From Brevibacillus sp. (GTDB lineage: Bacteria; Bacillota; Bacilli; Brevibacillales; Brevibacillaceae): a DNA stretch of 17,877 nucleotides. Under the pieces are notes generated by a model that worked only from the letters and a program-made list of their open reading frames with translations, made no database searches and was not told the DNA's origin. The stretch covers positions 1-17,877 of the forward strand of contig JARDZO010000183.1 in NCBI GenBank assembly GCA_029240815.1, given 5' to 3'. A program made the position numbers and the translations under genes. Shown here one piece after another: positions 450-17,877 of the stretch (its first letter is position 1; every line of letters starts with the position of its first letter).

Positions 450-514
450 TTTCCCTTCCTTTTCTTACAAATTATCCCCAATCTTCATAAAATAAAAATC
501 CGGACCTAAAACAT

Positions 515-550
515 ATAAAAACCAGCAACACGCAATGGTTGACTGGTTTC
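515..550 (-). terminator. Intrinsic terminator downstream of the DJ-1/PfpI gene and flavoprotein remnant
   Basis: Arms 519-529 and 538-549 pair on the minus strand (AAACCAG and CAAC against GTTG and CTGGTTT, with one bulged T), followed by a short T run. It is a diverged copy of the terminator at 4223-4255, and both directly follow the same flavoprotein tail. Confidence 0.75.
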
Positions 551-563
551 TTCATTCAGGAAT

Positions 564-617
564 TTAGTTTGTTTTTAAATCATATTGCTCTCCGTTCATC
601 TCACTGAACACATTTAT
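564..617 (-). pseudogene. Remnant of the 3' end of a second thioredoxin-reductase-like flavoprotein gene
   Basis: Read on the minus strand, this stretch encodes INVFSEMNGEQYDLKTN and a TAA stop. The intact flavoprotein at 4271-4840 ends INVISELNGERY, then VDHDVLKTN, then stop. The remnant lacks four codons. Homology continues into the following terminator (515-550 against 4223-4255); over roughly 100 nt about four in five positions agree by hand alignment. Homology stops abruptly at about 617. The DJ-1 gene reads into the remnant in another frame and takes its last codons and TGA stop from it. The simplest reading is that a paralogous flavoprotein gene once stood here and was deleted except for its tail. 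Confidence 0.8.
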
Positions 618-1971
618 TCTGGTTTCGATCCTTCCTTCTTGTAATGAATCGTCTGTCGATCCCGTATGCCACCAGGAAGGATGCTACGATAGTCAATAAC
701 AGATTGCCGAATGATTCGATAGAAATGGGTGCGCCTTTTAAAGGGAGATCGTCGGGACGATATTCCAATCGCTTTAGACCGTAGTTTGCAGTCAAAACGT
801 CCTCTTGCTCTGCCAATGCTTCTAGCGGAGCATCGAACATGAACCGCTTTGAATCGTCATGAATGAATTCGGGATGCACCCCATTTCTCTGTTCCTTCCA
901 TGAAGCGATCTCTTTTTCAGCCAAGCGCTTTGCCTCTGCTCCCGTAACGAACAACCGATCAAGCTCGGGAGCATTTTCGATCGTGTATCGGGGAATGACG
1001 TTCAAGTGATGTTTGGTCACAATGGGACGTACCACATTGGAGAGCGTATGCACATCGGTCGTACCGGAAGCAGAAAACGTATCAAATATGGAGATCAGTT
1101 CTCCGTCATCCATCCCGTCATACAGCAAGACACCGGTCTGCATTTTGTTCCATTGAAAGGCGAGATTCAGATAATACACGGCTTCGCTGCGATCGACTCT
1201 GTACGGATCCACCTTTGGATTTTTGACAAAGTGGTAGGAAGGATAATTCAATTCCTTCGCTATTTTTTCTGACATCGGTTCACCTAATTTTTGCGAAATG
1301 ACATACAATACGGCATCTATTCCAGAAGTAAGACCAGCCGAGCCGACAATATTCCCATCTTGCACATAACGTCGATCAGCGATCCAGTTCGTTTCCGTAT
1401 ATTGTTTCTTCGCTTGTTCAAACACTTGCCAGTGCAATGTGGAAGACTTTCCTTTCAATAAACCAGCATCAGCTAAATTCTCTGCACCTGCACAAATGCT
1501 GACGATTTCCGTCTTCGCATGCTTTTGAATCCATTCTCGAACAGGTTTGTACTTTGCTTCGTCAACCATCGGCATGAACGGGGCCACGATCAGATCAGGA
1601 CTTTTTCCTAATAATTGATCCAACTCCTCAAAGGAGTAATGGGGAACCAGATCCAGTCCGCCTGTTAACGACGTTACCTGTTTGGTCGGAGCAACAGCAT
1701 ACACATTGTACGCCCCCGTCATCGCAAACATCTCGTACGGAACCATAAAATCGAATACTTCCGTGGTCGGATTCCCCAAAACTACCGCCACAGTAGGTTT
1801 CGTCTGCTCATATTCGGGTATATGAATGCTCTGTAAAGAAGGTACGGGTTGTTCGCGAATCGCAAACCAATACCCTTTTTGGGACCCGGCAAAGCCCGTT
1901 AAGCCGATCCCCCCTACGATGAGCACGAAGCTCAGAACATAAACAATGAAACGTGACAACACTCTTAACAA
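601..1971 (-). CDS. Membrane-anchored tandem DJ-1/PfpI-domain protein
   Basis: A 456-residue protein of the class I glutamine amidotransferase-like superfamily. Residues about 8-28 form a signal-anchor. A full DJ-1/PfpI domain (about 60-240) carries the nucleophile-elbow motif SICAGAENLADAGLL with Cys160, plus Glu80 and His180. A second, truncated DJ-1-like half (about 278-345, from GVLLYDGMDDGELISIFDTF to PELDRLFVTG) has no elbow cysteine. A second membrane segment lies at about 420-437, followed by a basic tail. The start is TTG, chosen because GGAGGAG lies 6 nt upstream. The gene has its own promoter with an operator-like repeat shared with the upstream two-component operon, so it is probably a target of that regulator. 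The last residues (about NKCVQ) are read from the remnant at 564-617, so the natural C-terminus may have been replaced. Family assignment is firm; activity and substrate are unknown. Confidence 0.88.
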   Translation of the reverse strand: MLRVLSRFIVYVLSFVLIVGGIGLTGFAGSQKGYWFAIREQPVPSLQSIHIPEYEQTKPTVAVVLGNPTTEVFDFMVPYEMFAMTGAYNVYAVAPTKQVTSLTGGLDLVPHYSFEELDQLLGKSPDLIVAPFMPMVDEAKYKPVREWIQKHAKTEIVSICAGAENLADAGLLKGKSSTLHWQVFEQAKKQYTETNWIADRRYVQDGNIVGSAGLTSGIDAVLYVISQKLGEPMSEKIAKELNYPSYHFVKNPKVDPYRVDRSEAVYYLNLAFQWNKMQTGVLLYDGMDDGELISIFDTFSASGTTDVHTLSNVVRPIVTKHHLNVIPRYTIENAPELDRLFVTGAEAKRLAEKEIASWKEQRNGVHPEFIHDDSKRFMFDAPLEALAEQEDVLTANYGLKRLEYRPDDLPLKGAPISIESFGNLLLTIVASFLVAYGIDRRFITRRKDRNQNKCVQ

Positions 1972-2017: not shown

Positions 2018-2049
2018 ACTCTACCCCCGCTTTATGAACTCAATATGAA
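2018..2049 (-). promoter_or_regulatory. DJ-1 gene promoter with OmpR-type direct repeat
   Basis: On the minus strand, TTCATA (2044-2049) and TTCATA (2033-2038) are spaced 11 nt start to start. Nine nucleotides follow, then a -10-like TAGAGT (2018-2023). The same layout occurs before the response regulator gene (4186-4217). The repeat sits where a -35 would be, as for activators of the OmpR/PhoB class. The 5' leader to the TTG start is about 40 nt. Confidence 0.6.
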
Positions 2050-2064
2050 TGGATCATGCCAAGA

Positions 2065-2092
2065 AAAAGAAAAAACCGCCATCATGGCGGCA
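2065..2092 (-). terminator. Intrinsic terminator of the two-component operon
   Basis: CCGCCA and TGGCGG pair (2076-2090) around a TGA loop on the minus strand, followed by a T run (2067-2075). It lies 20 nt after the histidine kinase stop and separates that operon from the DJ-1 gene, which therefore needs its own promoter. Confidence 0.88.
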
Positions 2093-2110
2093 AGAATCGT
2101 ACGAGAATGT

Positions 2111-3433
2111 TCAGGTAGGCAGTGTCACGGTAAACGTGGTCCCTGTGTACGGACTGCTGGACACATGAATGTCTCCATGGTGAAGGACGAGGATTTGTTT
2201 CACAATGGACAGACCAAGCCCATTCCCTTTCACTGCACGATTACGGGCTTTGTCCGCCTTATGAAAAGGTTTAAAAATATCAGCGAGCTCTTCCTCCAAA
2301 ATTCCAATCCCATTGTCTGCTATGGTCACGATGATTCGATCATCCTTCTTCAAAGCGGTGATACGGATGGAGCCCTCAACTGGCGTGAATTTGATGGCAT
2401 TGCTCACCAAATTAATCCACACCTGGTCCAGCTGATCCTGATCAGCACGAATGACCATAGACTCCAGCTCTACTTCCAGGTTCATTTCCTTTTCTGACCA
2501 CAAAGGCTCCAGTGCAATCACGATTCTTCTCAGTTGTTCATCCAGACGGAATGCACTTACTTCTAACGGCTGTTGCTTTTGCTGCAAAAAGGAGAGGCGC
2601 AGTAAATTTTGACCCAAACGGGACAGACGTTCACTTTCTTCTTCGATGATCGTCAAATAACGCATTCGGCTCTCTTCTGTCATTTTCTTTTGCTTCAGAG
2701 CCTTCGTGAAACCCGAAATGGACGTTAAAGGCGATTGAATTTCATGGGAGACACTGGAAACAAAGTCCTGCCTCATTTGATTTAGCTTCGAGAGCTCGTT
2801 TGCCATCTCGAAAAAACTAAGCGACAATTGACCGATTTCATCCCTTCTCGTGGTAGGTGTGCCCACAAATTCAAAATTTCCTTTTGTCATCGCTTTCGTT
2901 GCTTCTGTCAAACGAAGTATTGGGTTCACCACATAACGGGCAGCGATCAATATCAGAAAGCTGCCAATGAACAGAACGAGAATGTACAAGAGATGAATCG
3001 AGTTCATAAACTCTTCCTCCACTCGATTTTCCTGCAACGTGATAAACAGAGCGTACGCCTGTCCGTTTGATTGAAAGGGGATTCCCATCATCGGAATCTG
3101 ATGCAAGCCAGCATCAAATGTGCGGGAATACTTACCCTCGAGCACTTCTTGAACACGACTGCGGTCTACGGAAATGGGTTCCCTTGCAGATAGAAGAGGT
3201 CTGCCATCCTGATTGTAGAGCTGGACAAGTCTGCCGGAATAACCGGAATAATTCTGGATAAACGGCACTAGCTTAGCTGAAGGAGTCGTCTGATAGGCTT
3301 GAATGATTCTTTGTCCGTCTTTTAATAAATCATCATGGATAAAGGTATGAATCCGTGATTGAAATAACCATGCACTCATCAAATAAGCAGTAAACAAACT
3401 TACCAGTACGATGCCGATAAAGATCAAGACCAC
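2111..3433 (-). CDS. Sensor histidine kinase, HAMP/HisKA/HATPase type
   Basis: Membrane-bound sensor kinase that should autophosphorylate and pass the phosphate to the response regulator encoded just upstream. Using the GTG start at 3433 (440 residues): TM1 about 2-23, an extracytoplasmic sensor region of about 125 residues, TM2 about 147-165, HAMP about 165-218, H-box SVSHEIQSPLTS with His230, N-box N341/N345, G1 box DNGIGI (373-378) and G2 box GNGLGLS (403-409). All catalytic boxes are present. The start is uncertain. The only good ribosome binding site (GGAGGTGA, 3461-3468) is 27 nt from this GTG but 6 nt from an in-frame ATT at 3454 that overlaps the regulator's stop. The ATT start would add IKSLYVR, giving the basic cytoplasmic flank that TM1 otherwise lacks. 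The stimulus is not deducible. Confidence 0.95.
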   Translation of the reverse strand: MVLIFIGIVLVSLFTAYLMSAWLFQSRIHTFIHDDLLKDGQRIIQAYQTTPSAKLVPFIQNYSGYSGRLVQLYNQDGRPLLSAREPISVDRSRVQEVLEGKYSRTFDAGLHQIPMMGIPFQSNGQAYALFITLQENRVEEEFMNSIHLLYILVLFIGSFLILIAARYVVNPILRLTEATKAMTKGNFEFVGTPTTRRDEIGQLSLSFFEMANELSKLNQMRQDFVSSVSHEIQSPLTSISGFTKALKQKKMTEESRMRYLTIIEEESERLSRLGQNLLRLSFLQQKQQPLEVSAFRLDEQLRRIVIALEPLWSEKEMNLEVELESMVIRADQDQLDQVWINLVSNAIKFTPVEGSIRITALKKDDRIIVTIADNGIGILEEELADIFKPFHKADKARNRAVKGNGLGLSIVKQILVLHHGDIHVSSSPYTGTTFTVTLPT

Positions 3434-3449
3434 ACGAACATACAGCGAT

Positions 3450-4130
3450 TTAATCTGAGGTCACCTCCAATCGATAGCCGAGTCCGCGGATCGTCACGAT
3501 GCGAAAGTCAGATTCGTATTCGGCAAACCGTTCCCGGAGACGCTTGATATGTACATCCACCGTCCGATCGTCCCCTTCATAGTCTATGCCCCATATTTGT
3601 TCAATCAGATTTTCCCGAGTAAATAGCTGCCCAGAATAGCTCCCCAATTTGTACAGTAATTCAAATTCTTTCATTGGGAGCGTTACCTTTTTTCCATCCT
3701 GGAAAATCACGTGATAGCTTTTTCGGTCCAAGGCGATACTCCCCAGCGTGATGATGCTGGAAGTCGCGATACGATATCGCCTGAGCAATGCCTTCACCCG
3801 CAGCACCAGCTCTACCGGGTCGAATGGCTTCACCAAATAATCATCCGTTCCCAGCTTAAATCCTTTGATCCGATCCGTTGCTTCCCCTTTTGCCGTGATC
3901 ATCAAGATCGGCATTTCCCTAAACTCTCGGAGACTGGCACACAAATCCCAGCCATCCATTTTCGGCATCATGATATCCAGGATCACCAGATCGACAGCGT
4001 GATTTTCCACGTATTCCAGTGCGTCTTCCCCATTTGATTTCTCAATGATCGTAAAGCCTTCATCCTCTAAATACAATTTCACCAGCTCACGGATATGCGC
4101 ATCATCATCGACCACGACGATCTTTGGCAT
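3450..4130 (-). CDS. Response regulator, OmpR/PhoB family
   Basis: A 226-residue DNA-binding response regulator. Its receiver domain (about 1-118) has the acidic pocket D8/D9/D10, phospho-acceptor D52 in VILDIMMPKMDG, T79 and K101 (VKPFD). The winged-helix effector domain (about 127-222) has the usual TRENLIEQIWG and RTVDVHIKRLRERF helices and ends IRGLGYRLE. The ATG start is preceded by GGGAGG about 8 nt upstream. The gene leads a two-gene operon with the kinase and overlaps the kinase's probable start. Its promoter carries a TTCA-type direct repeat at the -35 position that also occurs before the DJ-1 gene, suggesting autoregulation and control of that gene. Paralogue naming (YclJ, PhoP and others) is not possible from sequence alone. 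Confidence 0.96.
   Translation of the reverse strand: MPKIVVVDDDAHIRELVKLYLEDEGFTIIEKSNGEDALEYVENHAVDLVILDIMMPKMDGWDLCASLREFREMPILMITAKGEATDRIKGFKLGTDDYLVKPFDPVELVLRVKALLRRYRIATSSIITLGSIALDRKSYHVIFQDGKKVTLPMKEFELLYKLGSYSGQLFTRENLIEQIWGIDYEGDDRTVDVHIKRLRERFAEYESDFRIVTIRGLGYRLEVTSD
3452..3468 (-). promoter_or_regulatory. Ribosome binding site favouring an ATT start for the kinase
   Basis: GGAGGTGA (3461-3468) lies within the last codons of the response regulator gene. It is 6 nt from an in-frame ATT (3452-3454), whose last T is the first base of the regulator's TAA stop (an ATTAA overlap). The nearest canonical in-frame start, GTG at 3433, is 27 nt away. Confidence 0.55.
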
Positions 4131-4185
4131 GTCACTTCCCTCCCAATTGTTTCTGTCCTCATCATGAAGGAGATCCTCGTGGTTT

Positions 4186-4217
4186 ATTCTATACCAGTTT
4201 TGTGAACTCCGGATGAA
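4186..4217 (-). promoter_or_regulatory. Two-component operon promoter with OmpR-type direct repeat
   Basis: On the minus strand, TTCATC (4212-4217) and TTCACA (4201-4206) are 11 nt apart start to start. Nine nucleotides follow, then TAGAAT (4186-4191), a five-of-six match to a sigma-A -10. No good -35 is present; the repeat takes its place. Layout and most bases match the promoter at 2018-2049. Confidence 0.6.
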
Positions 4218-4222
4218 TAAAC

Positions 4223-4255
4223 AAAAAAACCAGCAACATGTAATGTTGACTGGCT
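4223..4255 (-). terminator. Intrinsic terminator of the flavoprotein gene
   Basis: Arms 4230-4237 and 4245-4253 pair on the minus strand (CCAG/CTGG and CAAC/GTTG with one bulged T), with a run of seven T (4223-4229) after it. It lies 15 nt after the flavoprotein stop and immediately before the two-component promoter. A diverged copy exists at 515-550. Confidence 0.85.
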
Positions 4256-4270
4256 TCTTGATCCATTCAT

Positions 4271-4840
4271 TTAGTTTGTTTTCAAAACATCATGGTCCAC
4301 ATAGCGCTCGCCGTTCAGCTCACTGATCACGTTTATCGCTACTTTCGCTCCATCACCGGAAGTAATGATTGTATGTACGCTTACTCCTGCGCACGTGCCT
4401 GCTGCCCAAATGCCTTCCACGTTTGATTTTCCTTGGGCATCTACATCTACTACGGTTTTGATGCGTGGCTCTGTACCTGCTTTGGTATTCACGCCAGCTT
4501 TCTCAGCCAGATCTACCAGTGCGCCAGTAGCCAGGATCACATGCTTCGTTTCAAAAGAGCCTTTTTCAGCGGTTTCAATCGTTACGCCTTGCCCGCTTTT
4601 AGAAACGTTGGTTACTTGATCAGTGATCAGCTCAGCGCCGAATTTCGCTGCTTGCTTTTTGCCGATCTCGATCAGGTCAGGGCCACTAATTTCAAGTACG
4701 CCGTAATGGTTTTCCATCCACGCACGCTTTGTCATGCTTTTATCGCTGTCGATCAAAAGCGTTTTCTTCCCCGCTTTTGCTGCAAACAACGCTGCGCTTC
4801 CTCCTGCTGGACCCCCACCAATAATCACGATATCGTACAT
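4271..4840 (-). CDS. Half-length thioredoxin-reductase-like FAD protein
   Basis: A 189-residue member of the pyridine nucleotide-disulfide oxidoreductase superfamily. The FAD-binding Rossmann motif GGGPAG is at 8-13, the strand ending in ATG is at 104-106, and the second FAD motif GIWAAGTCAG is at 143-152, followed by a TSGDGAKVA helix typical of thioredoxin reductases. Compared with TrxB (about 310-320 residues) the NADPH domain between the two FAD halves is missing, and there is no CxxC redox pair; the only cysteine is C150. The Asp of the usual AAGD motif is Thr149. It is probably a small flavoprotein that works with a partner reductase or senses redox, but no reaction can be assigned. Start: ATG with GGGGAG about 7 nt upstream. 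A TATAAT (4878-4883) is suitably placed. It has its own terminator, and a TnpB unit sits just upstream. Confidence 0.9.
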   Translation of the reverse strand: MYDIVIIGGGPAGGSAALFAAKAGKKTLLIDSDKSMTKRAWMENHYGVLEISGPDLIEIGKKQAAKFGAELITDQVTNVSKSGQGVTIETAEKGSFETKHVILATGALVDLAEKAGVNTKAGTEPRIKTVVDVDAQGKSNVEGIWAAGTCAGVSVHTIITSGDGAKVAINVISELNGERYVDHDVLKTN

Positions 4841-4919: not shown

Positions 4920-5165
4920 CCTCCCACACATGAATGAGTGGGGTTCTGATGTACTTCATACCTTCGTCGAATATACCGAAGCTCTCCGACACTGAATAAG
5001 GTTCCATCAGACTTTTGCGAACAAACCGCTCTGTCGGTACAAAGGTACCGCCTCGAACCCTCAAAGGATTTGACTTTGCCGCTTCGCGTTCGCATGCGCC
5101 CGGATCAAGACGCTTCATAGATAAGATCTTTATAAGTCCATACAAGCCACGAAAGGCCTTTGTAT
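4920..5165 (-). ncRNA. Candidate omega/reRNA (TnpB guide RNA scaffold)
   Basis: The region from the tnpB 3' end to the right-end hairpin is where TnpB guide RNAs are encoded. On the minus strand it shows several clean stem-loops: a 6-bp stem with CTTT loop (5036-5051), a CTTCG/CGAAG stem (4962-4981) and the terminal hairpin at 4923-4942. The guide would be the flanking sequence just past the right end, at about 4895-4917. Position and structure support the call; expression is not visible. Confidence 0.5.
4923..4942 (-). repeat. Right-end subterminal hairpin of the TnpB unit
   Basis: CCCAC/GTGGG stem, a 17-of-20 match to the hairpin at 6592-6611 in the same orientation. Confidence 0.75.
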
Positions 5166-6533
5166 CTTCAATTGAAGCTCGATTTCTTTGTACAAACCAT
5201 AAAATACGGGGAATTCAGACAGACATGCTTGTCGATCCACCTGACGATGGTTCACTTTCACATTCTTAATCAACCAGGCAGAGAAAATGTCTCGTTGAAT
5301 GCGGATTCCGATACCGGTATCGTGCCAACGCTCCGAAAGAGGTTTCTTTCGGTATTGATCATCAAAGGGATCGTACTGACTGGCTCGCACTGTTCGCGTG
5401 TTTACCTTGATGAGTTCTTTCTTTTGGTACCCGAGTTTCCGGTTGAGAATCGTGAGAAACAGGGAGGGGGCTTTTTTCGCAATCTGTCGTCCGAAACGGT
5501 AGCCTCGTTTTCGTTTGGCCAAGGCGCGGTAGTTCATCTCTTCGACTTTGACTTCATTTCCATGGGCAAGGACGAGATTTGCCAGTTTCTCATGTTCGAT
5601 CTTTCGTTTGGCAGCCATCCGTCTATGGATTTCTCGTAATTGTACTCGCAGTTCTTGATATCTTTTTGAGAACATCCAACGGGTGCCATCCTTCTTCTTT
5701 GCGGTACCATCCTCGTTGAACTTATGAGGGTTGGTTGCCCGTTTGGAACGATCCATCTTTCGTTGGAGGAGGCGCTTTTCGCGTTGCTTATCATCCAATC
5801 CGGGACAAAACTCTTGGAAAGATACAGATGTATCGCTCACAACGGCTATGGTGGAGATCCCAATATCAATTCCGACCTTCCCCTCTTGTCGATGATGTTT
5901 TTTCTTTTGAGGCGGGAAGCCGTCGATAACAAACTGGACGTAATATTTGACTTTACCGCGAACCCATTTTCGCAAGAGTCGGCAATACTTCACCTTTCCT
6001 GAAAGCGCTTCGTGAGCATATGTATCTTTTGGTTTTATGACAACAGGTAGAATAAGATGGTTCCAATGGATAGCACCATCACGAAAGCGAATGCCTTGCT
6101 TATTCGTTTTTCCTTCCAGCGAATCCATTTCTCCGTGCTTTTTAAAGTGGACATCGTTCGATTTGCGAAAGAGAAGATCTGAAATGGCTTTCCAAACGCG
6201 CGTGGCTATTTTTTGTGAAGTATTGGCATCGAGGAAAGAAGCATAGATTCTTTGCATGGGGCCAACGTACCCATGCAGGTGGTATTCACTCAACTTATGT
6301 TCCATTCGTAAAGAGGTGAGCATTTCATTGCGCTCAGGTGAAGGTTTTTGAGCGATCCAATAGTGGACACGATGGTCACGAAGATAGGCTTTATACCTTC
6401 CGAGAGCTTTGGCGAGTACGGCATTATATAGTTTTCGTCCGATTTCAAAACGTTTCTCCAAGAGATCCGCTTTCCAGTACTCTACACGTAAGGGACACTC
6501 TAAGATAAACGTTGGATGATTCTTCTTTGCCAC
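5130..6533 (-). CDS. tnpB: TnpB-family RNA-guided nuclease (IS605 OrfB-like) lacking the zinc ribbon
   Basis: A 467-residue TnpB. The N-terminal helical/WED-like region (about 1-210) includes YNAVLAKALGRYKAYLRD. The RuvC core follows: Asp223 in VGIDIGISTIAVVSD, Glu331 in VKVEEMNYRALAK and Asp415 in IQRDIFSAWLI, which aligns with the DRDxNAA motif of family members. The full D-E-D triad is therefore present. The zinc ribbon normally found just before the last motif is absent: residues 385-412 (ASQYDPFDDQY to GIGIRI) contain no cysteine. This seems to be a property of a TnpB subgroup, not recent decay, because the frame is intact. TnpB cuts DNA matching the guide RNA next to a short motif and helps keep the element at its site. 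The start is GTG, with GGGGGTGA 3-5 nt upstream. The 3' end probably overlaps the guide RNA gene. Confidence 0.9.
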   Translation of the reverse strand: MAKKNHPTFILECPLRVEYWKADLLEKRFEIGRKLYNAVLAKALGRYKAYLRDHRVHYWIAQKPSPERNEMLTSLRMEHKLSEYHLHGYVGPMQRIYASFLDANTSQKIATRVWKAISDLLFRKSNDVHFKKHGEMDSLEGKTNKQGIRFRDGAIHWNHLILPVVIKPKDTYAHEALSGKVKYCRLLRKWVRGKVKYYVQFVIDGFPPQKKKHHRQEGKVGIDIGISTIAVVSDTSVSFQEFCPGLDDKQREKRLLQRKMDRSKRATNPHKFNEDGTAKKKDGTRWMFSKRYQELRVQLREIHRRMAAKRKIEHEKLANLVLAHGNEVKVEEMNYRALAKRKRGYRFGRQIAKKAPSLFLTILNRKLGYQKKELIKVNTRTVRASQYDPFDDQYRKKPLSERWHDTGIGIRIQRDIFSAWLIKNVKVNHRQVDRQACLSEFPVFYGLYKEIELQLKIQRPFVACMDL

Positions 6534-14012: not shown

Positions 14013-14330
14013 TTAATATTTGTTGAACATCATGATCCAGATGGAACCGCCAATGATCGTAACGACGATCACAAGACCCAGGATCAGTGTCTGAACGTTG
14101 TAGCGCGGCTTTTCTCCCTCGCGAATGTGCATGAAGAAGAACAACTGAACGACGAATTGCAGGATCGCCATCACCAGAATGGTAAGCACCAGTGCGGTTT
14201 TTTCGAGCATATTGTTCATGACCAGCACCAGTGGAATAATGGTGAGCACAATCGACAGGATAAAGCCGATTACATAGGACTTGAGCGATCCGTGATTGTG
14301 ATGATCTCCATGGTTTTCATGTTGTGTCAT
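14013..14330 (-). CDS. qoxD: Quinol oxidase subunit IV (QoxD)
   Basis: A 105-residue subunit IV of the aa3-type quinol oxidase. Three hydrophobic spans (about 18-40, 45-67 and 82-101) follow a His-rich N-terminus (five His in the first 13 residues). It fits the small COX4/CyoD-like family, and its position as last gene after qoxC agrees. It helps assemble the complex and is not catalytic. Start ATG; the ribosome binding site GGGGGTGA lies within the end of qoxC, and only one base separates the qoxC stop from this start, so translation is coupled. Confidence 0.94.
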   Translation of the reverse strand: MTQHENHGDHHNHGSLKSYVIGFILSIVLTIIPLVLVMNNMLEKTALVLTILVMAILQFVVQLFFFMHIREGEKPRYNVQTLILGLVIVVTIIGGSIWIMMFNKY

Positions 14331-14331
14331 C

Positions 14332-14946
14332 TTACATCACCCCCATCAGGTAGACGACTGTGAAGAGGAAGATCCACACAACGTCCAGGAAGTGCCAGTA
14401 CAAGCTCAGGTTGGTCACTTTGCGGCGAGTTACCGGTGTAATACCACGGCGTTTCAACTGAACCATCAACGCGACCATCCAGAACAAACCGACCGAAACG
14501 TGAAGTCCGTGCGTACCGACAAGCGTAAAGAACGCGGACCAGAAAGCACTTGTTGCCATGGTTGCACCTTCATGCATCAAATGCGTAAATTCATTGATCT
14601 CCAGTACTACGAAGCCCAGACCCAGTACAGCAGTTACGGCCAGCCAAGAAATCATTTCTTTTACTTTCCCTTTGTTCATAGCAAGGACAGCCAAACCGCT
14701 CGTAAAGCTACTGGTCAACAGGATAAAGGTCGAAGCGATGATCCCTGGAAGTTCAAACAATTCTTTCCCTGTCGGCCCCCCTGCGTAGCTGTTCATCAAC
14801 ACCGCATAAGTGGCAAACAACGAACCGAATAAGATACAGTCAGTCACAACGAAGATCCAGAATCCTAGTACTTTTAATTGTTCATGCTCTTCATGGCCAT
14901 GTTCATGATCGTGCGCTCCATGACTGTGGTCGTGTTGAGTCGTCAT
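14332..14946 (-). CDS. qoxC: Quinol oxidase subunit III (QoxC)
   Basis: A 204-residue subunit III, the same length as B. subtilis QoxC. Five membrane spans carry the typical LGFWIFVVTDCILFGSLFATY, EINEFTHLMHEGA, TSAFWSAFFTLVGTHGLHV and LYWHFLDVVWIFLFT segments (spans begin near residues 29, 65, 98, 132 and 180). The first 23 residues contain eight histidines, which is unusual and suggests metal binding. It stabilises subunit I in the membrane. ATG start with GGGGAGGG 7 nt upstream. Lies between qoxB (66 nt upstream) and qoxD (1 nt downstream). Confidence 0.96.
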   Translation of the reverse strand: MTTQHDHSHGAHDHEHGHEEHEQLKVLGFWIFVVTDCILFGSLFATYAVLMNSYAGGPTGKELFELPGIIASTFILLTSSFTSGLAVLAMNKGKVKEMISWLAVTAVLGLGFVVLEINEFTHLMHEGATMATSAFWSAFFTLVGTHGLHVSVGLFWMVALMVQLKRRGITPVTRRKVTNLSLYWHFLDVVWIFLFTVVYLMGVM

Positions 14947-15012
14947 TAGTAAACCCTCCCCAGTGAAGCCTCCGTGCTGCGCACTTCCTCCACTGGTACG
15001 TAATAATCCGTA

Positions 15013-16860
15013 TCATATTGGAAGGAACGTGCCCACATGCACAAATCCGACCAAGAAGAAGAAGATGGACATAATAAACGGAATACCGGAGTTTTTCGGC
15101 ATATGGATCGGTTCCAAATGCGCCGGTTCTTCTTTAAACGTACCATTTGCTTTTGCTTCTTTTGTCAGCCACCAGTCATCGGCACCTTTCACCGTAGGAA
15201 CGACGGCAAAGTTGTAAAACGGTGCTGGAGAAGGAATCGACCATTCCAGCGTACGCGCATTCCACGGGTCACCCGTTGTATCGCGCTCGCCGTGTTTGAT
15301 GCTGTATGCGATCTGCCATACTTGGAAGATGAAACCGATCCCCATCAAGAATGCCCCAACAGTAGAGATCAGGTTGAGATCTGCCCAACCGCGGTCCCAG
15401 CCGTATGTGTAGTAACGGCGAGTCATACCCATGAAGCCAAGTGCGTATTGCGGCATAAAGCAAACGTAGAAACCGATATTCCAGAACCAGAAGCCCCATT
15501 GTCCGAGCTTTTCATCCAGCTTGAAGCCGAACAGTTTTGGCCACCAGTAGTAGATCCCTGCCAGGTAACCAAACACTACCCCACCGATCAAGACCTGATG
15601 GAAGTGGGCAATCAGGAAGTAACTGTTATGGTATTGATAGTCTGCAGGAGCAACAGCCAGCATGACACCGGTCGCACCACCTACGACAAAGCAAGGGATA
15701 AAGGCGATGGTCCAGAGCATTGGCTGTTTAAAGGATATCCGACCGCGGAACATTGTAAACAACCAGTTGAATATCTTCACCCCGGTCGGGATCGCAATGA
15801 CCATCGTCGATATCGCAAAGAACACAATGACGCTGGCACTTGTACCCATTGTGAAGAAATGGTGAGCCCATGTGAAGAACGATGCAATAGCGATGGCCAT
15901 CAAAGCCCACACCATGGATTTGTAACCAAAAATCGTTTTCTTCGAGAATGTCGCAACGACTTCCGAGAAGATACCAAACGCTGGTACAACTACGATGTAT
16001 ACCTCTGGGTGACCCCACATCCAGATGAGATTGAGGTACATCATCGGGTTACCGCCGCCGCCCATGGTAAAGAAGTGAGCACCTGCGAAACGGTCAAGGA
16101 ACAAGAGAGCAATTGTTACAGTCAAGATTGGGAAAGCAAAGATGATCATGATGCTGCTGGACAGTACAGACCAGCTAAATAATGGCATTTGGGAAAGCTT
16201 CATGCCAGGAGCACGCATTTTCAGAATGGTTACGATGAAGTTAATCCCCGTAGCCAAACTACCTATCCCTGATATCTGTATCCCCCATATCCAGAAGTTC
16301 TGACCCGGACCAGGGCTGAAATCATTTTGTGATAACGGTGGATACGACAACCAACCAGCATCCGGGGAACCCCCGATTACGAACGACAGGTTGAACAGCA
16401 TCGCACCAAACATGAACAGCCAGAAGCTGACTGCATTCAGGAAAGGATAGGCAACATCTCGTGCGCCTAATTGCAGCGGAACCACCATGTTAAACAGACC
16501 AAACATCATCGGCATTGCCATGAACAAGATCATGATCGTACCGTGAGTCGTAAAGATGGCATTGTAGTGATCCGAATGCAGGAACTCTACGTTCGGGAAT
16601 GCCAATTGCAGACGCATCAGCAGGGCGTCGACCCCACCGCGGAACAGCATCAGAAGCGATGCGATCAAGTACATAATCCCGATTCGTTTATGGTCAACGG
16701 TAGTCAGCCATTCACGCCAGAGCCAACCCCATTTTTTATACTTGGTAAGGACAAAGACGATCGCGACCATAGTCAGAGCAATCGAAACGTCTGCACCGTA
16801 AATCAGTGGATCACCAGTAACAAAGAACGTGGATGCAAATTCCTTAAGGTTCTCCCACAC
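15013..16860 (-). CDS. qoxB: Quinol oxidase subunit I (QoxB), heme-copper catalytic subunit
   Basis: A 615-residue catalytic subunit of the aa3-type (A-family) heme-copper oxidase. It reduces oxygen to water with electrons from menaquinol and pumps protons. Ligands visible: His106 (THGT, low-spin heme), His284 with Tyr288 in WGHPEVY (CuB and the cross-linked Tyr), Glu286 of the D-channel in the same motif, His333/His334 in WAHHFF (CuB), and His419/His421 in IAHFHQV (high-spin and low-spin heme). The many membrane spans are as expected; B. subtilis QoxB is slightly longer. GTG start with GGAGGAGG 8 nt upstream, 24 nt after qoxA. All key residues are intact. Confidence 0.98.
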   Translation of the reverse strand: MWENLKEFASTFFVTGDPLIYGADVSIALTMVAIVFVLTKYKKWGWLWREWLTTVDHKRIGIMYLIASLLMLFRGGVDALLMRLQLAFPNVEFLHSDHYNAIFTTHGTIMILFMAMPMMFGLFNMVVPLQLGARDVAYPFLNAVSFWLFMFGAMLFNLSFVIGGSPDAGWLSYPPLSQNDFSPGPGQNFWIWGIQISGIGSLATGINFIVTILKMRAPGMKLSQMPLFSWSVLSSSIMIIFAFPILTVTIALLFLDRFAGAHFFTMGGGGNPMMYLNLIWMWGHPEVYIVVVPAFGIFSEVVATFSKKTIFGYKSMVWALMAIAIASFFTWAHHFFTMGTSASVIVFFAISTMVIAIPTGVKIFNWLFTMFRGRISFKQPMLWTIAFIPCFVVGGATGVMLAVAPADYQYHNSYFLIAHFHQVLIGGVVFGYLAGIYYWWPKLFGFKLDEKLGQWGFWFWNIGFYVCFMPQYALGFMGMTRRYYTYGWDRGWADLNLISTVGAFLMGIGFIFQVWQIAYSIKHGERDTTGDPWNARTLEWSIPSPAPFYNFAVVPTVKGADDWWLTKEAKANGTFKEEPAHLEPIHMPKNSGIPFIMSIFFFLVGFVHVGTFLPI

Positions 16861-16883
16861 TTGGTATTCCTCCTCCCTCTCAC

Positions 16884-17846
16884 CTAGTGATTCATTTTGG
16901 AATGATCCATTCCAGGCATATGGCTCATGTCAGAGCCTTGTTCGATTTCTTTCGTAGCTGCTTCTCCGTCAGGGTCCATGACGTGTTTCATGTCGTGACC
17001 GTGACTGTATTTCTGAACAATCTCTTCAAATAAGCCTTCTGGGAATGCAGAATACATTTTCTCATCTGTCACACCAGGCTTTTTCAATTCATCATAATCT
17101 TGCTTGGACATAGCAGGTGTCGTACCTTTCACTTGCTGTACCCACTGGTCAAACTCATTTTGTGGCTTGGCAACCACTTTGAATTGCATATGAGCAAAGC
17201 CTTCACCGGAGAAGTTCGCGCTAAAGCCTGCGAATTCGCCTGGTGCATCTGCTTGCAGATACAGCTCAGTCGCCATACCGGACATTGCATAAATCTGACC
17301 GCCCAGCTCTGGCACCCAGAACGAGTTCATCGGAGCCTCTGCAGATACTTGGAAATGAATCGGTACGCCAGCTGGAATTTCTAAGTAATTGACAGTCGCG
17401 ATATTTTGATCAGGGTAAGTAAACATCCATTTCCAATCCAAAGCCGTTACCTGAATGGTCATGGGCTTCACTTCTTTATTTGGGTTTTCTTTCAACGCAT
17501 ATGTGTCACGAGCCGTGTAAAAACCCAAAACAGCAATGATGACGATCGGAATTGCCCACCAAATCACTTCAAGGGTCGTATTATGGGCCCATGTCGGTTT
17601 GTAAGGTGCCTTGTTCTCCGGTGTATCGCGATATCGATAAACGATAAATGCGGTAAGCGCGAGAACGGGGACAATTATGATTGCGCACAAAATCACTGAG
17701 ATGATAATGAGATTGTACTGCGTTTCGGCAACGGGTCCTTTCGGATTCAGGACAAGATAATCACTTCCGCATCCCGACAGCAGGACAGTTGCTAGTGCTG
17801 CCAAGACCCAAAAATGAAATTGCCTCAGCATTTTTCCTCCACTCAT
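16884..17846 (-). CDS. qoxA: Quinol oxidase subunit II (QoxA), lipoprotein without CuA
   Basis: A 320-residue subunit II. A lipoprotein signal with Cys26 in LLSGC is followed by two membrane spans (about 45-70 and 88-106) and an extracytoplasmic cupredoxin domain with DWKWMFTYPDQNIATVNYL and SFWVPELGGQIYAM. The CuA ligands (CxxxC and His) of cytochrome c oxidases are absent, with FSGEGFAHMQF in their place; this marks the enzyme as a quinol oxidase. The last 40 residues are rich in His and Met (DMSHMPGMDHSKMNH), possibly copper binding. The frame stays open to a GTG at 17870, but GGAGGG 9 nt before the ATG at 17846 favours that start; ATG 17831 is also possible. First gene of qoxABCD; the operon promoter lies beyond the window. 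Confidence 0.95.
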   Translation of the reverse strand: MSGGKMLRQFHFWVLAALATVLLSGCGSDYLVLNPKGPVAETQYNLIIISVILCAIIIVPVLALTAFIVYRYRDTPENKAPYKPTWAHNTTLEVIWWAIPIVIIAVLGFYTARDTYALKENPNKEVKPMTIQVTALDWKWMFTYPDQNIATVNYLEIPAGVPIHFQVSAEAPMNSFWVPELGGQIYAMSGMATELYLQADAPGEFAGFSANFSGEGFAHMQFKVVAKPQNEFDQWVQQVKGTTPAMSKQDYDELKKPGVTDEKMYSAFPEGLFEEIVQKYSHGHDMKHVMDPDGEAATKEIEQGSDMSHMPGMDHSKMNH

Positions 17847-17877
17847 TCTCCTAATCCCTCCCTCTTTCACACAACAA

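What the first reader, a model, noticed from the sequence alone, without database searches (positions are those of the whole stretch)
2018..4217. Shared operator: same direct repeat and spacing before the two-component operon and the DJ-1 gene
Seen directly: both minus-strand promoters carry TTCAT-N3-GAG-TTCAYAAA (4212-4217 with 4201-4206; 2044-2049 with 2033-2038). The half-sites are 11 nt apart in both, and exactly 9 nt separate the second half-site from a -10-like TAGAAT or TAGAGT. Neither has a good -35. OmpR/PhoB regulators bind TTNACA-like direct repeats of 11-nt period at this position. Inference: the regulator activates its own operon and the membrane DJ-1 protein, which would be a dedicated output or feedback component of the sensor.
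Basis: partly seen in the sequence, partly recalled or inferred. Interest (0 to 1): 0.7.

Follow-up and report, generated by a model that had tools for sequence, protein, structure and literature searches.

The report
Sensor operon and DJ-1 share operator
A soil bacterium's sensor-kinase operon and the neighbouring gene for a membrane-anchored DJ-1-like protein start with the same on-switch sequence, and that switch is kept in front of the DJ-1 gene in many related species, so the DJ-1 protein is very probably an output of the sensor.

Summary
It is not chance. In 15 of 16 related loci where this DJ-1 gene lies beside the regulator or kinase, the repeat (at most 1 mismatch) is within 260 nt of the DJ-1 start; the 16th has it one small ORF further up. 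Shuffles expect none. In loci chosen by protein homology, 36 of 37 repeats have TANNNT exactly 9 nt downstream. Eleven DJ-1 genes of ten Brevibacillaceae lacking the regulator have no repeat at up to 2 mismatches. The element equals the box before hrtBA-like genes of staphylococcus-like HssRS systems, so the regulator works like HssR/HitR; it forms a separate clade, and the kinase lacks three of four HssS heme-pocket residues. In relatives the box also precedes efflux pumps and a His-rich anchored protein: an envelope-stress-like regulon with DJ-1 as one output. Autoregulation is less uniform (16 of 24 loci), and the window's own regulator site is the weaker one. Binding and expression were not measured. 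Side finding: the kinase gene apparently starts with a conserved ATT codon.

The parts
2031..2049 (-). DJ-1 operator: direct repeat TTCATATTGAGTTCATAAA, half-sites 2049-2044 and 2038-2033
   Evidence: conserved before DJ-1 in relatives
2018..2023 (-). -10-like TAGAGT of the DJ-1 promoter, 9 nt after the second half-site
   Evidence: 9-nt spacing in 36 of 37 boxes
601..1971 (-). DJ-1/PfpI membrane protein, 456 aa (TTG start), N- and C-terminal hydrophobic helices, DJ-1 fold about 54-266, invariant Cys160
   Evidence: PF01965 72.9 bits vs cut-off 26.6; alignment A1; model and fold match
2075..2091 (-). terminator-like hairpin with T run between kinase and DJ-1, upstream of the DJ-1 operator
4199..4217 (-). 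operator of the regulator-kinase operon: TTCATCCGGAGTTCACAAA, half-sites 4217-4212 and 4206-4201
4186..4191 (-). -10-like TAGAAT of the operon promoter
3450..4130 (-). OmpR/PhoB-family response regulator, 226 aa
   Evidence: PF00072 and PF00486; in a set of 21 rows with 100/100 support
2111..3454 (-). sensor histidine kinase (HAMP, HisKA, HATPase_c); likely start ATT at 3454-3452 overlapping the regulator's stop TAA, GGAGG 9 nt upstream (the ORF caller's GTG start is 3433)
   Evidence: start codon

Best explanation
The two promoters carry one and the same activator site of the neighbouring OmpR-family response regulator. Inferred mechanism: the membrane kinase senses a stress at or in the cell envelope and phosphorylates the regulator; a regulator dimer binds two GTTCA half-sites one helical turn apart, placed at about -38 to -22 where the -35 element should be, and recruits RNA polymerase to a -10 box exactly 9 nt downstream. 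This switches on the DJ-1 gene and, through a weaker and less uniformly conserved site, the regulator-kinase operon. The DJ-1 protein has hydrophobic helices at both ends, with its DJ-1 domain probably outside the membrane (positive-inside reading), and is an effector of the stress response, most likely a surface-facing detoxifying or damage-binding protein related to isocyanide hydratase. The regulator belongs to a broader HssR-like group whose other members often sit with efflux pumps. Shown by sequence comparison: site, spacing, conservation, linkage, clade. Inferred: binding, activation, topology, signal, enzyme activity.
For: Box with at most 1 mismatch within 260 nt upstream of DJ-1 in 15 of 16 relative loci with adjacent regulator or kinase, 16 of 17 with the window; 300 dinucleotide shuffles of each of the 17 regions expect 0 at up to 1 mismatch and 0.04 at up to 2. 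Where present, the box starts 72-97 nt before the DJ-1 start codon. TANNNT at exactly 9 nt in 36 of 37 boxes of 25 loci found by regulator or DJ-1 homology; the next best spacings reach 7. Of the other 37 DJ-1 loci, without adjacent regulator or kinase as set in the script, 1 has the box at up to 1 mismatch (L016, a genome with the regulator) and 3 at up to 2. Brevibacillaceae: DJ-1 in 9 of 9 genomes with the regulator, 10 of 30 without, Fisher p 0.0004; the 11 DJ-1 genes of those 10 genomes have no box at up to 2 mismatches (7; L023, L033, L034, L038), though two of the 7 show a stray 3-mismatch hit (L215, L219). A second DJ-1 gene elsewhere in a regulator-bearing genome (L222) has the box at 1 mismatch. 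Same box, spacing and -10 in 10 of 12 fetched HssR-type loci, before ABC genes read as hrtBA (Pfam ABC_tran and FtsX for L158). Box pattern in 6 relative genomes: 14 matches against 1 for the reversed control.
Against: No binding, footprint or expression data. The regulator's own site in the window is poor (3 mismatches), and 8 of 24 relative loci show no box before the regulator operon. The box class is not exclusive: with up to 2 mismatches over box plus TAnnnT, 78 matches (13 in the reversed control) occur in 30 Brevibacillaceae genomes without this regulator, against 107 (11) in 22 genomes with it (summed); several of those looked at precede paralogous regulator systems, so cross-talk or a paralogue could be the true binder. 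Of the 14 matches, some lie where no target is evident (L050, L054; L052 before a kinase fragment). Other DJ-1 copies in regulator-bearing genomes lack the box (L223 and L224 of G042; L032 of G104). DJ-1 is not in the fetched region of 9 of the 24 regulator loci, and DJ-1 homologues occur in genomes without the regulator. Absence of the regulator rests on searches that scored only part of the first-look candidates per genome (for example 75 of 80, 28 of 131). Topology and catalysis are unproven; mean model confidence is only 67.9.
Confidence: 0.8

Rival explanations
1. The two boxes are read mainly by a paralogous HssR/HitR-like regulator elsewhere in the genome, and the local regulator is a passenger or only partly involved.
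For: Paralogues of about 54-70% identity are common and carry closely similar boxes (L122, L204, L205, L213). [quoted passage not shown] anthracis occurs at the regulator-repeat level too (PMC3968170, abstract and passages).
Against: The box before DJ-1 follows the presence and neighbourhood of this regulator clade, while genomes with only the paralogues have DJ-1 genes without it (L023, L033, L038 of G034, G029, G030).
Confidence: 0.12
2. It is a true HssRS heme sensor and the DJ-1 protein is a heme-stress factor.
For: Same box and spacing as before the hrtBA-like genes; automatic database names HssR and HssS among the closest relatives.
Against: The regulator is outside the hrtBA-linked clade (99/97) and inside another (100/100); Arg94, Phe128 and Arg163 of HssS have no counterpart in 16 of 16 kinases of the clade aligned, while Phe25 is Phe or Tyr (residues as given in PMC11237747); no hrtBA-like genes in the window.
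Confidence: 0.06
3. The repeat is a repressor site or a shared core-promoter quirk with no role for the regulator.
For: Nothing measured excludes repression.
Against: No -35 at either promoter, site in the -35 position, box absent from DJ-1 genes of Brevibacillaceae without the regulator; precedent of activation that needs the repeat in B. anthracis (PMC3968170, passages).
Confidence: 0.04

Closest known systems
HssRS-hrtBA heme sensor system (Staphylococcus, Listeria, B. anthracis)
   Same: OmpR-family regulator with HAMP/HisKA-type kinase; direct repeat GTTCATATTnnGTTCAY, 9 nt before the -10
   Different: Separate regulator clade, 43-49% identity; kinase lacks Arg94, Phe128 and Arg163 of the heme pocket; target is DJ-1, not hrtBA; the operon has its own box
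HitRS-hitPQ of Bacillus anthracis (PMC3968170, abstract and passages seen)
   Same: HssR-like regulator, repeat closely related to the hrt one, box in the promoter ahead of its own genes, envelope-stress theme; loci L107, L117 and L119 of the window's clade lie beside ABC transporter genes
   Different: DJ-1 in the window (and a His-rich protein in relatives) instead of an ABC transporter; HitR itself was not placed in the tree here
PhoB/pho-box type activation (recalled)
   Same: 11-nt direct repeat replacing the -35 about 10 nt upstream of the -10
   Different: Other half-site sequence
Isocyanide (isonitrile) hydratase InhA, DJ-1/PfpI superfamily
   Different: Membrane-anchored, extra C-terminal half, and Ala in the window (Ala, Ser, Gly or Asn in the family) where InhA has the Thr after the Cys

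Membership tests
OmpR/PhoB-family response regulator with HisKA kinase | receiver plus winged-helix domain; kinase with HisKA and HATPase_c | tested here: met
   all above Pfam cut-offs
HssRS heme sensor | direct repeat GTTCATATTnnGTTCAY with -10 nine nt downstream | tested here: met
   exact but for the first G at the DJ-1 site, 3 more mismatches at the regulator's own site
HssRS heme sensor | regulator falls in the clade of hrtBA-linked HssR | tested here: not met
HssRS heme sensor | kinase heme-pocket residues Phe25, Arg94, Phe128, Arg163 | tested here: not met
   Tyr, gap, gap and Met in the window; residues from PMC11237747. An Arg lies two columns before Arg94 in the window
HssRS heme sensor | hrtBA next to the system | tested here: not met
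   the rest of the host genome is not held
HssRS heme sensor | activation by heme | not testable with these tools
   needs experiment
HitRS | orthology to HitR/HitS | not tested
   HitR sequence was not fetched
DJ-1/PfpI superfamily | DJ-1 domain with nucleophile-elbow cysteine | tested here: met
   PF01965, Cys160 invariant in 26 sequences
Isocyanide hydratase | Cys101-Thr102 pair | tested here: not met
   Cys present, Thr replaced by Ala in the window
Isocyanide hydratase | catalytic Asp17 equivalent | tested here: inconclusive
   Asp74 is invariant and plausible by position, but no printed sequence alignment to InhA covers it

The most novel reading that the evidence does not exclude
An envelope-stress two-component system of HssR/HitR type whose chief output is not a pump but a membrane-anchored, outward-facing DJ-1/isocyanide-hydratase-like protein, in relatives co-regulated with an anchored protein bearing two HxHP motifs: a surface detoxification module, run by a kinase translated from a conserved AUU start codon that overlaps the regulator's stop codon.
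Probability: 0.4. Interest if true: 0.65.

Novelty: new variant of a known kind. Interest (0 to 1): 0.52.

Why it matters
It gives a testable regulon, operator and output for a clade of sensors that databases label 'heme sensor' although its kinases lack three of the four tested heme-pocket residues, and it ties an apparently unstudied membrane DJ-1 family (no paper found) to a defined regulator. Knowing the box lets one list further candidate targets in Brevibacillus, Paenibacillus and Bacillus genomes and look for the inducer with a simple reporter.

Tried and rejected
Heme-sensor reading: rejected on the kinase residues and the tree. Chance repeat: rejected by conservation. TTNACA-type site: the collected boxes are of TTCAT-N6-TTCAY type, but that list was gathered with a TTCATATTnnGTTCAY pattern, and its loci from L197 on came largely, whose pattern already held TAnnnT at this spacing; so for the spacing only one search is cited, whose loci have regulator or DJ-1 homology hits. 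Second DJ-1-like half in residues 277-345: hinted at by 0.7-2.2-bit alignments to the InhA N-terminal half and loose matches to tandem plant DJ-1d; the C-terminal part alone found nothing in the PDB; left open. RNA element: none at gathering threshold. Literature (this open-access library only): no paper holding 'DJ-1 PfpI', 'histidine kinase' and 'Brevibacillus', none holding 'DJ-1 PfpI family', 'two-component system', 'regulon' and 'Bacillus'; the GTTCATATT text search listed 20 of 115 papers, none on this subject by title. NCBIfam and Pfam give the His-rich protein no family above cut-off.

Rows dropped: in the tree L107 and L118 gave no full-length stop-free regulator and were left out; 45 rows remained. 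L004 is not held as a genome and was not searched. Alignment A1 holds the window and 25 of the 40 loci. Of the kinases asked for outside L094-L119, eight loci (L120, L124, L205, L213, L166, L165, L203, L004) gave no match to the start pattern.

Full report
The sequence facts. On the minus strand the DJ-1 gene (601-1971) is preceded by TTCATATTGAGTTCATAAAGCGGGGGTAGAGT (from 2049) and the regulator-kinase operon by TTCATCCGGAGTTCACAAAACTGGTATAGAAT (from 4217). A terminator-like hairpin (2091-2075) lies between the kinase and the DJ-1 box, so DJ-1 probably needs a promoter of its own.

The genes. The regulator has receiver and winged-helix domains, the kinase HAMP, HisKA and HATPase_c, and the membrane protein a DJ-1/PfpI domain. 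Close named relatives are from Brevibacillus: regulator 90% and kinase 77% (over 87% of its length) to Brevibacillus sp. GCM10020057; UniRef calls several relatives HssR and HssS. The host genome is not held.

Conservation of the operator. Forty loci with DJ-1 relatives and 26 regions fetched mostly around regulator relatives were mapped. Regulator relatives passing strict cut-offs occur in 9 of 39 genomes of the Brevibacillus family (of G001), 8 of 104 of the family of G002 (Paenibacillus cremeus) and 5 of 193 of the family of G003 (Bacillus methanolicus) (cut-offs 1e-105, 1e-108, 1e-108; only part of the first-look candidates of many genomes was scored). With two more, found in G003 and G005, 24 fetched loci bear the regulator. 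Fifteen of these hold DJ-1 in the fetched region, and in G003 the kinase and DJ-1 lie about 34 kb from the regulator (L104, L105). In 15 of these 16 the box (at most 1 mismatch to TTCATATTnnGTTCAY) lies within 260 nt of the DJ-1 start; in the 16th (L110) it precedes a 108-aa ORF ahead of DJ-1. Shuffled upstream regions expect none at that stringency. In 25 loci found by homology, 36 of 37 boxes have TANNNT at exactly 9 nt, and no other spacing exceeds 7.

Negative controls. DJ-1 genes counted as without adjacent regulator: 1 of 37 has the box at up to 1 mismatch, 3 of 37 at up to 2. Of these 37, L016 is in the same genome as L006, L002 has a box about 500 nt upstream, L026 and L032 lie in regulator-bearing genomes without a box at that gene, and L004 has a regulator relative of 65% about 4.6 kb upstream. 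In the Brevibacillus family DJ-1 occurs in 9 of 9 genomes with the regulator and in 10 of 30 without (Fisher p 0.0004). The 11 DJ-1 genes of those 10 genomes show no box at up to 2 mismatches (7, where L215 and L219 have a 3-mismatch hit; L023, L033, L034 and L038). On the other side, L223 and L224 of the regulator-bearing G042 lack it too. The reversed-pattern control gave 1 match against 14 in six genomes; some of the 14 have no evident target.

Own operon. Directly before the regulator the box is present in 8 of 24 loci. By reading the maps, a further 8 have it before a gene or genes ahead of the regulator in the same direction (the His-rich gene in L094, L095, L097, L098, L100; DJ-1 in L096, L110 and L118, the last with a 467-nt gap), and 8 have none (L099, L101, L102, L106, L107, L114, L117, L119). 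The window's own site departs at 3 positions. Autoregulation is therefore likely but the weaker half of the claim.

What kind of box it is. A class-wide search with a recalled HssR sequence found 32 of 398 genomes. Of 12 fetched regions, 10 have the regulator-kinase pair divergent from an ABC ATPase and permease pair, which I read as hrtBA from the arrangement (Pfam ABC_tran and FtsX for the pair of L158), with the box before it, each with TANNNT at 9 nt. So the element is the HssR-type box. Published work shows that four conserved nucleotides of this repeat are needed for activation in B. anthracis (PMC3968170, passages), and a mutated repeat was made to test HssR-dependent activation in Listeria (PMC6305404, passages; the result was not in the passages seen). 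Yet the window's regulator lies in a set of 21 rows (100/100) apart from the hrtBA-linked clade (99/97). In its kinase Arg94 and Phe128 of HssS fall on gaps, Arg163 on Met and Phe25 on Tyr; in 16 of 16 clade kinases aligned the first three are missing, while 8 of 8 HssS rows have all four. These are residues reported as needed by HssS (PMC11237747, abstract and passages). The regulator works like HssR; a heme sensor is not shown and unlikely.

The wider regulon. In relatives the box also precedes HlyD and ABC transporter genes (L107 and L208; ABC genes in L117, L119 and L207), an AcrB-type pump (L113, box with 2 mismatches; L122, beside a paralogous regulator), an MFS transporter (L202), a His-rich anchored protein with two HxHP motifs (L094, L095, L097, L098, L100, L108, L197) and paralogous regulator operons (L204, L205, L213). 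The class is shared by paralogues: 107 matches (11 in the reversed control) in 22 genomes with the regulator and 78 (13) in 30 without (summed). A box alone does not name its binder; the link to this regulator rests on neighbourhood and co-occurrence.

A second finding. The kinase reading frame of the window has an in-frame stop two codons before ATT-AAA-TCG-CTG; GGAGG lies 9 nt upstream and the ATT overlaps the regulator's TAA. Among 23 kinases of the mapped loci, window included, 21 have ATT and 2 ATG at this place, and 21 have GGAGG within 25 nt upstream; five have such a nearby stop (L094, L095, L101, L107, window). The 14 kinases outside the clade that matched the start pattern have ATG (13) or GTG (1) at or just before it (counted by eye). 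The T of ATT is also required by the overlapping stop codon, so its constancy is not independent proof. AUU initiation is rare (recalled); one text search showed 12 of 2,266 papers, titles and starts of abstracts only, and none on such a kinase of this group.

Verdict. New variant of a known kind.

Noticed in passing
window 3450-3454 (minus strand); 21 of 23 kinases in L094-L119 and the window: The sensor kinase appears to start with ATT, overlapping the regulator's TAA stop, with GGAGG 9 nt upstream; 2 relatives have ATG. Lengths given for relatives vary, as if starts were miscalled.
   Followed up: partly
window 508-640 and 4216-4345: Imperfect direct repeats of about 130 nt (79-80% in the ungapped blocks): the end of the FAD oxidoreductase gene (4271-4840) and the stretch after it recur beyond DJ-1, so the regulator-kinase-DJ-1 cassette sits between two copies, as after an old insertion or duplication.
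   Followed up: partly
window 4271-4840: Thioredoxin-reductase-like FAD protein of only 189 aa, covering the first third of TRX_reduct and far below its cut-off; possibly a short stand-alone form.
   Followed up: no
window 5130-6533: TnpB-like gene (NF040570, 71.6 bits, below its cut-off of 100); a partner transposase was not looked for.
   Followed up: no
L094, L095, L097, L098, L100, L108, L110, L197, L201, L207, L208; distant in L217, L218: Anchored His-rich protein of about 275 aa with two HxHP motifs, no Pfam family above cut-off, often box-controlled and next to the regulator or DJ-1; a distant relative also precedes DJ-1 in two genomes without the regulator.
   Followed up: partly
L104/L105 (G003), L107, L102, L118, L096/L200 (G019), L100/L203 (G042): In some relatives the regulator reading frame holds stops (G003, G005, G011, G204) or the kinase is not beside the regulator; in G019 and G042 a kinase or kinase piece with its own DJ-1 and box lies elsewhere.
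   Followed up: no
window 14013-17870: Quinol oxidase genes (QoxB/CyoB- and CyoA/QoxA-like) at the far end of the window; no link to the sensor was tested.
   Followed up: no
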